From Jaapia argillacea MUCL 33604 (taxonomy: Eukaryota > Basidiomycota > Agaricomycetes > Jaapiales > Jaapiaceae): 64,000 bases of DNA. Under the pieces are notes generated by a model. It was given only the letters and a program-made list of their open reading frames with translations, was not told where the DNA came from and made no database searches. Position numbers and translations under genes: made by a program. The stretch spans positions 57,366 through 121,365 of the forward strand of contig KL197717.1 in assembly GCA_000697665.1 (NCBI GenBank), given 5' to 3'. Positions 38,475-57,211 of this stretch are shown here, piece by piece (position 1 is the stretch's first letter; each line of letters begins with the position of its first letter).

Positions 38475-39999
38475 ATGTCTCCATATCTATTCAACGCACC
38501 CGCTCCTGGGATCCCCTACTTCACGCCCGCCCAGGTCCCGGCTTCAGGTACTGCTCTGAATCCACAACCCGATGGAAAACCTATCCCCAAGCTCTTCCAA
38601 CCCATCAAGATCCGTGGTCTTGAGTTCCATAACCGTATCTTTGTGAGTTGACTCGCTATCTTCATCGTCTGTCGCATTTTAATGGCTTCAGGTTAGTTAT
38701 CGCCTCTATGTCAGTACTCGGCGGATAATGGAAAGCTAACAGCGTGGCATATGGCACATCGTACGCCGATTTATTTACGATCACCCAATATGTTCGTGAG
38801 CTCATTTGATCTCCAGTTGGAGGAATCTTCACTCGCGGTCCTGGTCTCTCGATCATCGAGGCCACAGGTGTTCTTCCGGAGGGTCGTATTACCCCCGAAG
38901 ATGCCGGATTATGGGAGGACGAACAAATCGAGCCGATGCGAAAGATAGTCGAGTTTGCTCATTCTCAGAACCAGAAGATCGGGATTCAACTTGCTCATGC
39001 TGGGAGAAAGGCTTGGACTGTTGCACCTTGGATTCACATGGGCCATGCCGCTCGTCCGACGAACCTTAACCCCGCGCCCAAGGTTGTCGCACCCTCTGCC
39101 ATCAAATACGACGAGGAGTTCAACCTGCCGGCTGAGTTAACGAAGGAGGGGATAAATGAAGTTATCAGTGCTTTTGTGGCTGCAGCGATTCGCTCCCTCA
39201 AAGCTGGTTTTGATGTTATCGAAATTCACAACGCCCATGGTACGCACACATCTCCCAACTCCAAATGCTCGACATTGATTACCCTTCGTCGCTATCAACA
39301 GGTTATCTGTTGAGCTCTTTCCTGAGCCCTGTCAGCAATAAGCGCACGGATGAGTATGGTGGCTCCTTTGAGAACCGAATTCGGTTGACTCTAGAGGTAG
39401 TCGACGCCATCCGAGCTGTCATTCCCGCTTCGATGCCTCTATTCTTACGGTAAGTTTTTCAATGATGACCTTTAGAGGGGTAACTTCATGCCTTAGTCCT
39501 CAGTGTCTCGGCTACTGAATGGCTAGAAGATGTACTACCTGCCGGTACACCATCCTGGTCCATCGACGAGACCGTCAAACTCGCTGGAATCTTGGCCGAT
39601 CACGGGGTCGACTTCCTCGACGTCTCCAGCGGTGGTAACAACAAAGAACAAAAGATCCACAAAGCGTCCCAAGCCTACCAATCACAATTCTCCGACGCCG
39701 TGAAGAAAGCTCACGGCTCAAAAATCGTCGTCGGTTCTGTCGGAGGTTATGTTGATGGCCACGTTGCCCAAGAGGTCTTATCGCAAGGCAAGGCTGATGT
39801 GATTCTGGTTGGGAGACAGTTCCAGAAGAACCCGGGTTTGGTTTGGACGATGGCGGATGATCTTGGGGTTAGCATTCATAATGCGCACCAGATTGAGTGG
39901 GGCTTTAGGGGTAGAGGACCACAGACTAGTGCTAGGGTTCAACATGGACATGATGAACCTCAGGTCAATGGTGAGAAGGCGAAGAAGGTGGATTGGTAG
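38475..39999 (+). CDS. NADH:flavin oxidoreductase, old yellow enzyme family (OYE1)
   Basis: Five exons (38475-38642, 38697-38760, 38817-39239, 39302-39449, 39504-39999) give 432 residues. This is an FMN-dependent TIM-barrel ene-reductase/dehydrogenase of the YqjM-like class. The entry motif is [18 protein letters not shown], then [17 protein letters not shown] with the Cys that tunes FMN in this class. AHAGRKAW carries the substrate-loop Arg, and the active-site pair sits in [30 protein letters not shown] is the family signature, and the FMN phosphate site is [10 protein letters not shown] plus [13 protein letters not shown]. All catalytic elements are present, so it should be active. It is the most canonical of four paralogs in this window. 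The substrate is unknown. Confidence 0.93.
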
Positions 40000-41754
40000 A
40001 ATAGTCGTGATTGGTATACCGCTAGATCTGTCCATTAGAGGTGTTTAGTTAGTATCTAGAGGTGCGACATGTTCTTGTATTTTTACTTGCCTAGATAGTG
40101 GGCGTCCGCTTCGGCTTGGCAAGGATGCAGCGAAACTGTGTTATTGCAGCCGCTCTGAGTGTTTCGCGACTAAAAACGACTTCACAGAGTAGCCAGCGGT
40201 AGTAGGAAGTAATCGATGGTGATCATGAATCTCCCCGACTTTGCGTTCTCCCTACTTAAGCTTATTACAACAACACCGTTAACTCATCAGGTAGTTTAGT
40301 GTCCCCTTCTCTGAGAGCCCTGAGACAGGTGCACAAGCAGGACCTCCATTCCGTCGTATCGTCCTCTGAGTCGTGATAAGCATTCCATTCGGAATACTAT
40401 TCAATGGGATCTTCTTCGTTTCCAAGTGTCTAAATAGAGAAATATCTCTCTGGAATTCTCTTCTCTGCGTGGATACTCGAAACGAGAACGACCCACGCGC
40501 GATTGCTGTGGAAGGACTGTCTAGCGATGTGGTTCGCATGGCAGATGGCCGCGGCGTCAAATAATCACCGGGATCGGATGGATCGAGCGCCAGGTTGAAA
40601 CGGTAATGTGTTGATAAGCTTCGCAGAGGGGTTCTAATTGTGTCGTGACCAGCCTGAGCTGGTAAGCTAAGCCCATATCTATTGTAGAAGTCGGAGAGTA
40701 GTTTCTCACCGGTGGTAGGTAGCTCCGGAGATGTGACCACAACTTGAAGGACCCGAGAGAAAGAGCCTACCGGGGTGGTGCATGAGGACACGAGTATTTG
40801 CGGAGGCGCTTATACAGAATCATAGGGTCGCGAATGGCCTTCGGCACTGTGCTCGTGGACTTCGATTACTGCAACTGTTCAGGTTGCCTCGAACAAGCGC
40901 TTTATTGGAATCCATCAACCGCAAGTAGCGTACCTGGTCCTCAGCACTATCTTCAAAGTGTGCGGGCAGCGACTCCAGAGATATGCGCACCGTGCGGCAA
41001 GTACAGTTGTGACTATGTGTGTCGGTCAAACATGGACTGCTTGCTCGAAGGTGCCGTGTGGCGGTGCTTGAAAATATTTCCATCTCTGAGAAGCTCTGAC
41101 TCCGATAAACACTTTTTGACCCTTGTGGCACCTCAACGGTGAGCATTCTGGTCAGCATACTTCCATATCTTAGGGGCCTAGGGCTCTCCGATACGTTGAT
41201 CGATCTCTGAGACCAGAGGATGGCACGAACTGCCAGGAAAGTTGGCACGGCTGGTTCAACATCGATGCTGTGCATGCTGCTCCGAGTCGGACTGGGGGTC
41301 CTTTTCGAAGGATAGTCTCCGTTAGTGGCATGCTATGCAGCTACGGCCAGATATTCTTTCCGCGCTTTTGAAATCACACCCACTGTTTCCTTGGTGGAGT
41401 CTCTGGAATGTCACGAAACGACGGATGATCATGATCTGCCGCTCGTCCATCCTCGGCTATTCTTGGATGCTATTCTTCAATCAGTCTAAATCACGAAGTG
41501 TTCTTGAGCGTTCCACTCTCCACTCTCCGCTCTCCACTTCGGAGACTTCTGACCTTATGTTAGACCGTCCGGACCATGGAATCCCCGGATACATCGAGGC
41601 CATGGCCCTTCTCTCCTTGCATCCGATTATGGGGATACCAGTGGACGAGCGCTTGGTGCTCTAGCATAAGACCCACCTTTCGGTGTCGTCCCTCGTCCTT
41701 CGCGTCGACACTTCCAAATCCTCATCTCGTGTTGGATAAGTTTCATTCCTTGAC
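40000..41754. other. spacer upstream of 7-TM copy 1, segmental duplicate of 45.3-46.7 kb
   Basis: No intact gene is seen. Large parts align with the interval before 7-TM copy 2. Examples are GAATCCCCGGATAC near 41580 against AAATCCCCGGATAC near 46530, and GGATGGATCGAGCGCCA near 40575 against AAATGGACCGAACGCCA near 45536. Minus-strand coding remnants in it are listed separately. Confidence 0.6.
40280..41280 (-). pseudogene. minus-strand coding remnant, unidentified family, copy 1
   Basis: Read on the minus strand, pieces such as IDVEPAVPTFLAVRAIL, RLRKYSCPHAPPR (followed by a stop) and LALDPSDPGDYLT align with pieces at 45350-46290 (IDVDLINGDTPVRHLA, HPRKYLCLQTPPQ, LAFGPFDPYDDTICDLT) in the same order. 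Frames are broken by stops and shifts. I do not recognise the family. Confidence 0.4.
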
Positions 41755-55468: not shown

Positions 55469-57211
55469 ATGACCTCTACCCACCCCAGCACACCAGCTCC
55501 TACTACCTCTTCGGTCGCACCTGCACGAGTCCCCGCCTTAGAGACGGTGAACGACTCACACTGTATGCCGACCCCAAAGCTTTTCCAACCCATCAAGATT
55601 CGCGGCGTCGAGTTTCACAACCGCATCTTTGTGAGCAATTCCAATCTATCTTAGCCATACCATGGAAGTTTATTCACCCCCCTTTTCAGGCTTCCCCAAT
55701 GTGTCAGTACAGTGCGAACCATGGCAAGCTTACAGCTACACATATATCACATCGTAAGGGAGTTCACCTCTATTCAACTTCCTACCTCTCAACTCTCAAA
55801 CTCATGTAGTTAATGAGATTATAAACCAAGGCCCTGGCCTCAGTTTCGTCGAAGCGACCGCCGTTCTCCCAGAAGGTCGTTCCACTCTTGAAGACGCCGG
55901 GTTGTGGGATGATAACCAGGTCGACCCATTGAAGGAGATCGTCGATTTTGCTCACACTCAGCATCAGAAGATTGGGATCCAACTTGCTTATGCTGGCCAT
56001 ACAGTTGCTAAGGGACCTTTTCCCTTCTCGGATGCTTCATTCGCGGCGCAGCCGACCCCGAACGGTGTAGGACAAGGCTCCTATAATGGTGTTACCTACC
56101 TAGCGGCTCCTCCGAACAACCCACAAGCTCTCGACCACCAAACTTACCTGGCAGACGACTCCTCCGAGGGACAGAGCGAACAAGCATCGTTGCCTGGACC
56201 AGTGACCGGGGCTTGCGGTTCATACAATGGCACCCATGTCTGCGTGTCAGGGTTCAAAAATCCCATTCAACCCACGACGTTGCAGAAGGAAGATATCAAA
56301 ATAATTGTAGCTGCTTTCGCCTCCGCCGCAGCCCGTGCAGTCGAAGCCGGCTTCGATGTCATTGAGATCAACAGCGCTCATGGTAGGTGAATGGTCACTA
56401 CAACATCATCCAATCATTGAATGTTGCTTTAGGCTACATCTTCAGCTCTTTCTTAACACCATTCATCAATGGCCGTACGGACGAATATGGCGGGTCCTTT
56501 GAGAACCGAATTCGGTTTACGTTGGAGGTCGTGGACGCTGTCCGCTCGGTTATCCCTGCCGCGATGCCCCTTTTCTTACGGTGCGTCGTGCCTCAACGAG
56601 ACCTTCTAGACCTCAACTAAGACCCAAATTTGTACAGCGTCTCAGCAAGCGACTGGCAGGAAGACGTCCTGCCTGCAGGTGCTTCGTGGACCATCGACGA
56701 CACAGTGAAACTCGCAGCTATCCTCCCAGTCCATAATGTCGACCTCATTGATATCTCGAACGGTGGCAGCAACAACGATAGAGACCGTTCGTCACCACTC
56801 GCCTCGCGTGTCGACCATTACCAGGCTTCTGCTGCCATGAAGAAAGCAGTTGACTCCCAAATTGTCGTCGGCTCTGTGGGCGGATACGAGGACGGAAAAG
56901 CAGCGGAAATGGCTCTAGAGCAAGATAAGGTCGACGTGATTTTCATTGGGAGGGGCTTCCAGAAGAATCCAGGATTAATACTGTCCATGGCGGCTGGTTT
57001 GGGAGTCGCCATTAATGGTGGACAACAAGGTCATGGTATCGAGGATGGGACCCTGCAGGCAAAAACAGAAGGAAACTCCGAAGGGGGGGCTGTTGTTACC
57101 GCGCAGCCGGTGGAGGCAGGCAAGGAGAGGTTGTTGCCTACGATGCCAAATGGGATGGCCAAAGCTTCCGTCCTAGACGGCAACTCCAGGGCAATAGTGG
57201 CTGTCGCTTGA
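55469..57211 (+). CDS. OYE-family flavin oxidoreductase with loop insert (OYE4)
   Basis: Five exons (55469-55630, 55690-55753, 55810-56382, 56433-56580, 56638-57211) give 506 residues. [15 protein letters not shown] keeps the class Cys. The substrate loop is [10 protein letters not shown] instead of AHAGRKAW, so the Arg is lost. The active-site pair reads N-x2-H ([16 protein letters not shown]), which replaces the first His with Asn. [24 protein letters not shown] and [12 protein letters not shown] are intact, so FMN should bind. A 90-residue Gly/Ser/Gln-rich insert holds a Cys pair ([15 protein letters not shown]). The C-terminus is extended by about 60 residues without repeats. The product is probably a folded flavoprotein with altered chemistry. 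Confidence 0.9.

What the first reader, a model, noticed from the sequence alone, without database searches (positions are those of the whole stretch)
38475..57211. Array of four OYE paralogs alternating with three 7-TM genes and an NmrA-like gene
The order is OYE1, 7-TM-1, OYE2 (inverted), 7-TM-2, NmrA, OYE3, 7-TM-3, OYE4. Intron positions are shared within each family, so the locus grew by tandem and segmental duplication of an OYE plus membrane-protein module. Repeated pairing of a flavin reductase with a membrane protein of unknown role suggests a functional link, for example transport or sensing of the enone substrate. That link is inference. I know of no described system of this composition.
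Basis: partly seen in the sequence, partly recalled or inferred. Interest (0 to 1): 0.75.

Follow-up and report, generated by a model that had tools for sequence, protein, structure and literature searches.

The report
Mixed reductase and receptor gene array
In a wood-dwelling mushroom relative, copies of an old-yellow-enzyme gene and of a receptor-like membrane gene lie mixed together; the two families seem to have multiplied separately rather than as a package, some copies are damaged, and some enzyme copies have lost key active-site residues and gained an unusual cysteine-rich lid.

The parts
38475..39999 (+). OYE1: class III (thermophilic-like) old yellow enzyme, 432 aa, 5 exons, catalytic residues kept (JAAARDRAFT_34138)
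40422..41754 (.). Upstream block of 7-TM-1; collinear, apparently noncoding match to 45395-46702
41755..43250 (+). 7-TM-1 (TM1): open seven-helix membrane protein, 312 aa, 11 exons
43672..45309 (-). OYE2: full-length 468-aa OYE paralog with Cys61->Arg, Tyr63->Phe, Arg141->Tyr, Lys142->Asp and a four-cysteine lid (JAAARDRAFT_128661)
45395..46702 (.). Upstream block of 7-TM-2, duplicate of 40422-41754
46703..48234 (+). 7-TM-2 (TM2): damaged by a loss of about 75-80 bp in the helix-5 region; frame lost with the conserved splice sites, shortened with others; probably not a working protein
48607..49664 (-). NmrA-like NAD(P)-binding protein, 296 aa, 4 exons, open; a single copy in the array
51057..52253 (+). 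OYE3: truncated OYE copy with two cysteine hairpins in the lid and lost catalytic residues; probable pseudogene
52892..54508 (+). 7-TM-3 (TM3): open seven-helix membrane protein, 350 aa, 11 exons (JAAARDRAFT_665086; the public model starts at residue 44, without helix 1)
55469..57211 (+). OYE4: full-length 506-aa OYE paralog; His215->Asn, Lys142->Thr, His138->Tyr; 92-residue lid (42 in OYE1) with a cysteine hairpin

Best explanation
Two unrelated gene families multiplied side by side at one locus of Jaapia argillacea. OYE1 is the conserved parent: a flavin enzyme that takes hydride from NAD(P)H and reduces activated C=C bonds (chemistry inferred from its family). It gave rise to faster-evolving copies (OYE2, OYE3, OYE4 and, on contig C21, two more), in which the loop that caps the active site was replaced by longer lids with cysteine hairpins (C-G-x-W-N-G-x-P-Y-C in C21a and C21b, similar in OYE4, looser in OYE3 and OYE2) and catalytic residues were lost to different degrees. 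Independently, the neighbouring 7-TM gene, whose family has the predicted fold of a class D G-protein-coupled receptor, was duplicated. The latest event copied TM1 (or TM2) with about 1.3 kb of upstream DNA, without an OYE. OYE3 was then truncated and TM2 damaged. OYE2 and OYE4 still show amino-acid constraint, so they probably encode working proteins with altered activity, substrate or role. Shown: genes, damage, residue losses, relative ages, fold match. Inferred: catalysis by OYE1, changed function of OYE2 and OYE4, receptor function of TM1 and TM3. No working link between the two families is shown.
Against: A tree with OYE1 + OYE2 as a pair is not rejected (p-AU 0.176), and OYE2 + OYE4 + C21 has only 94/81. 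Gene conversion between TM1 and TM2 could make their split look too young. OYE silent sites are near saturation, so ages are relative only; for TM3 and OYE4 pairing cannot be judged (TM1-TM3 introns z 2.2, OYE2-OYE4 z 2.2). The 117 comparison sequences were the best hits to OYE1, so biased towards canonical members. The 7-TM model is of a paralog (P0002, 47% identical to TM3), mean pLDDT 70.5 from 13 sequences; Foldseek's best E was only 1.6e-3, and a profile search of PDB sequences found nothing up to E 10.
Confidence: 0.72

Rival explanations
1. The reader's module: an OYE and a membrane protein duplicated together because they work together, the OYE making or removing an enone that the 7-TM protein senses.
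For: Three OYE/7-TM neighbours in the array, and one more OYE of another type with a distant 7-TM relative about 2.8 kb downstream on the same strand (C23:131.8-136.5 kb). The predicted receptor-like fold fits sensing. Co-location of some fungal GPCRs with biosynthetic gene clusters has been noted and proposed as a lead to ligands (PMC12842992, passages).
Against: OYE1/OYE2 and TM1/TM2 splits differ in age; no OYE in the duplicated block; in the loci fetched, the nearest paralogs of each family lack the other; the C23 case is expected by chance at P about 0.08, more if the family is larger. OYE3 and TM2 are damaged. The same survey found no Ste2-class receptor inside a biosynthetic gene cluster.
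Confidence: 0.08
2. OYE1 and OYE2 arose together with TM1 and TM2, and later gene conversion between TM1 and TM2 (about 2.7 kb including the upstream block) reset their apparent age.
For: The similar tract is nearly continuous (40422-43147 against 45395-48014). A pair OYE1 + OYE2 is not rejected.
Against: Conversion would have to cover 1.3 kb of apparently noncoding DNA plus the gene and stop near OYE2. OYE2 is inverted relative to the block. OYE2 has a cysteine-bearing lid like OYE4 and C21, not like OYE1.
Confidence: 0.12
3. The whole OYE2-OYE4 group is decaying: all lid-remodelled copies are on the way to pseudogenes.
For: OYE3 is truncated; further copies on C34, C81, C21:675k and C9:48k look like fragments in the stretches fetched. 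C21a and C21b have lost both catalytic His and the Tyr.
Against: OYE2 and OYE4 keep full open frames, four canonical introns and low pairwise dN/dS (0.13 for OYE1-OYE2; 0.05 and 0.21 in the comparisons with OYE4) at near-saturated silent sites; C21a and C21b keep Arg268 and Arg372.
Confidence: 0.2

Closest known systems
Class III (thermophilic-like) old yellow enzymes: fungal BfOYE4 (7BLF), AnOYE8 (7QFX), the Penicillium steckii enzyme (8S4P), AfOYE1 (8J59); bacterial YqjM (1Z41)
   Same: OYE1 aligns over residues 3-406 of 432 (E 7.8e-145 with 7BLF) with the catalytic positions kept; the OYE2 model matches the same structures (Foldseek E 1.1e-42).
   Different: OYE2 and OYE4 change positions that are otherwise nearly invariant and carry a longer lid with cysteines.
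Ste2, class D fungal pheromone receptor (7AD3, 7QA8, 7QBC)
   Different: No STE2 Pfam match and no PDB sequence found by profile; Ste2-like receptors were found only in Ascomycota in a survey of 1357 species (PMC12842992, passages).
DUF6534 proteins, putative novel GPCRs of Agaricomycotina (PMC12842992)
   Same: Agaricomycete-enriched 7-TM family proposed as receptors.
   Different: 0 of 13 family members match PF20152 at E <= 1, and the 8 DUF6534 matches found in this genome do not coincide with the 7-TM places.
NmrA-like NAD(P)-binding family (PF05368)
   Same: E 3.7e-20 over residues 9-251.
   Different: Nothing unusual seen; 26 exon-level matches of this family in the genome.

Membership tests
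Class III old yellow enzyme (for OYE1) | Oxidored_FMN domain and near-full-length similarity to solved class III enzymes | tested here: met
   PF00724 E 2.3e-66; 7BLF E 7.8e-145
Class III old yellow enzyme (for OYE1) | His/His pair and Tyr proton donor; Cys near the flavin; conserved Arg residues | tested here: met
   His215, His218, Tyr220, Cys61, Arg268, Arg372; class III residues and roles of His pair and Tyr from PMC8954901 passages
Class III old yellow enzyme (for OYE2, as an active member) | Conserved Cys, Tyr and Lys around the flavin and substrate | tested here: not met
   Arg, Phe and Asp at those places; His215, His218 and Tyr220 kept. The roles of the Tyr and Lys are recalled
Class III old yellow enzyme (for OYE4, as an active member) | Substrate-orienting His pair and conserved Lys | tested here: not met
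   His215->Asn, Lys142->Thr; His218, Tyr220, Cys61 and Tyr63 kept
Class III old yellow enzyme (all) | FMN binding and NAD(P)H-dependent C=C reduction | not testable with these tools
   needs protein
Ste2 / class D GPCR (for the family of TM1 and TM3) | Class D seven-helix arrangement | tested here: met
Ste2 / class D GPCR (for TM1, TM3) | STE2 sequence family (PF02116) | tested here: not met
   0 of 13 members match at E <= 1; TM1 has no match up to E 10, TM3 only UPF0182 at E 3.1
Ste2 / class D GPCR (for TM1, TM3) | Coupling to a heterotrimeric G protein | not testable with these tools
   needs experiment
DUF6534 GPCR candidates | PF20152 domain | tested here: not met
NmrA-like | PF05368 domain | tested here: met

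The most novel reading that the evidence does not exclude
The lid-remodelled OYE paralogs are no longer ene-reductases. They are flavin-barrel proteins that bind a reactive enone or redox signal through their cysteine-hairpin lids and, with the neighbouring class-D-fold receptors, form a lineage-specific chemical-sensing system in a basidiomycete.
Probability: 0.05. Interest if true: 0.85.

Novelty: new variant of a known kind. Interest (0 to 1): 0.42.

Why it matters
The claimed enzyme-membrane-protein module dissolves into two separate expansions, which guards against reading function into tandem arrays. What remains is testable: a set of old yellow enzyme copies with rebuilt active-site lids and lost catalytic residues, useful for asking what the capping loop does and what OYEs do in the cell, and an unnamed agaricomycete 7-TM family whose predicted fold is that of a receptor class that one large survey found only in Ascomycota.

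Tried and rejected

Slips mended: my first splice attempts failed for OYE3, OYE4 and the 7-TM genes and were redone. I first held that OYE3 and TM2 could not be spliced in frame; one search shows other GT-AG joins that can (11 and 2), so both are now called truncated or damaged, not unspliceable; the odds did not need to change. In the tree the row C34_364k was P0002, which is the C34:369k gene, so one gene appeared twice; corrected, where TM1, TM2 and TM3 group together (89/95, not starred).
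Full report
Where it is. The window is contig C9:57366-121365 of a 43.7-Mb assembly. Database proteins identical to products of the window are named as Jaapia argillacea MUCL 33604, a saprotrophic agaricomycete (recalled).

Observation. Hand-made spliced models confirm the eight features in the stated order. OYE1, OYE2 and OYE4 are open from start to stop with four canonical introns in the same phases; TM1 and TM3 are open with ten introns in the same phases; NmrA is open (296 aa). The public proteins are identical to my models for OYE1 and OYE2 (P0014, P0031). 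OYE3 ends before the phosphate-binding part and lacks the SPxCQ segment. TM2 lacks about 75-80 bp that in TM1 encode part of helix 5; with the conserved splice sites its frame is lost, and the two other GT-AG joins that stay open drop part of helices 4-5.

How the array grew. Of 15 flank comparisons one was positive: 40422-41754 and 45395-46702, directly upstream of TM1 and TM2 (score 409; 40 shuffles, best 43; 70.5% identity over 1,181 ungapped columns against 61-65% in five shuffles). The other 14, among them the OYE 5' and 3' flanks tried, did not exceed their best shuffle (the TM1/TM2 3' flanks equalled it, 32). Four-fold sites are 64% identical for TM1-TM2 (77 sites) but 36% for OYE1-OYE2 (151 sites), with non-overlapping bootstrap intervals. 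Eight TM1-TM2 introns align far beyond shuffles (z 12.4; the two introns next to the deletion were left out), four OYE1-OYE2 introns do not (z -0.5); the other pairs gave z 0.6 to 2.2. So TM1/TM2 look copied later than OYE1/OYE2 and without an OYE. For the older events (TM3, OYE4) silent sites are near saturation and nothing firm can be said about pairing. In the tree, five Jaapia OYEs form one clade against 36 chosen from the 120 listed homologues (100/99), with OYE4 beside C21a and C21b (100/99); OYE2 joins these with 94/81, and the alternative OYE1 + OYE2 is not rejected (p-AU 0.176). OYE3 was left out of the tree. In the corrected 7-TM tree TM1 + TM2 have 83/86, the three array genes 89/95, and the nearest others lie on C34.

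Is the neighbourhood meaningful? I reduced exon-level matches by hand to 27 OYE places and 28 7-TM places; both are lower bounds. Outside the array, 1 of 23 OYE places is within 3 kb of a 7-TM place: an OYE at C23:132k, of the classical type by my reading of its active-site motif and with a stop inside one match, and a divergent 7-TM gene about 2.8 kb downstream on the same strand. By chance this has P about 0.08, or 0.16-0.29 if the family is two to four times larger than detected. It is a lead, not support. The OYE loci fetched from C21:604-614k, C2 and C81 have no TM1 or TM3 match, and the 7-TM loci fetched from C34, C21 and C12 have no OYE match.

The OYE copies. Position by position (117 other homologues, those listed without P0014, P0016 and P0031; all are best hits to OYE1 and so biased to canonical members; most are named as fungi, some are unnamed metagenome proteins): His138 117 of 117, Lys142 117, His218 117, Arg268 117, Arg372 117, His215 116, Arg141 116, Tyr63 114, Cys61 111, Tyr220 108 (9 Phe). 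OYE1 has all of them. OYE2 has Arg for Cys61, Phe for Tyr63, Tyr for Arg141, Asp for Lys142, and keeps His215, His218 and Tyr220. OYE4 has Tyr for His138, His for Arg141, Thr for Lys142, Asn for His215, and keeps Cys61, Tyr63, His218 and Tyr220. C21a and C21b have lost His215, His218 and Tyr220, but keep Cys61, Arg268 and Arg372. The row for OYE3 held only its later exons: Asp and Glu stand for His215 and His218, and the Tyr position reads Ser. The segment between HAGRK and the next helix is 40-47 residues in all 117; it is 42 in OYE1, 48 in OYE2, 62 in OYE3, 92 in OYE4, 123 in C21a and 215 in C21b. It holds two or more cysteines in 1 of 117 and in 5 of 5 paralogs, as motifs such as CGVWNGVPYC (C21b), [10 protein letters not shown] (OYE4) and [10 protein letters not shown] (OYE3); in OYE2 the motif is loose. 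In AnOYE8 the His pair and the Tyr orient and protonate the substrate, and a capping subdomain (loop 3 region) is described (PMC8954901, abstract and passages). That the segment here is that cap is my reading of the alignment. The database search with the C21a lid region found 2 proteins among 44 candidates, both Jaapia; it needs shared 5-letter words and did not return OYE2 or OYE4 either, so diverged lids in other fungi could be missed. The OYE2 model keeps the fold with the lid at low confidence (residues 142-187). dN/dS is 0.13 for OYE1-OYE2, which speaks for constraint.

Verdict. The cysteine-lid OYE copies and the Ste2-like fold are the parts worth following.

Noticed in passing
C9:48063-48571 (L010:663-1171), about 9 kb left of the window: Decayed relic of a further OYE copy, catalytic segment missing, no TM1 or TM3 match in the flanks fetched.
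   Followed up: partly
L054:335-4986 (C23:131834-136485): OYE of classical type followed by a divergent 7-TM gene about 2.8 kb downstream on the same strand; stops lie inside matches of both, so either may be broken or the intron structure is unresolved.
   Followed up: partly
L031 (C21:604000-613900): The public C21a protein begins with three copies of a repeat of roughly 50 residues in front of the OYE domain (P0134).
   Followed up: no
60719-64000: Direct repeats of about 160-390 bp at 77-85% identity at the right end of the window; the DNA just beyond it reads N for about 4 kb.
   Followed up: no
18719-19021 and 59383-59700: Inverted repeat pair, 70% identical, about 40 kb apart.
   Followed up: no
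2054-3301 and 12237-13547: Two related long open frames, the first with a weak F-box LRR match below the cut-off.
   Followed up: no
30427-32173: Adenylylsulphate kinase, ATP-sulfurylase and PUA-like matches in adjoining frames on the minus strand.
   Followed up: no
C21:330-418 kb: Local cluster of nine further members of the 7-TM family.
   Followed up: no
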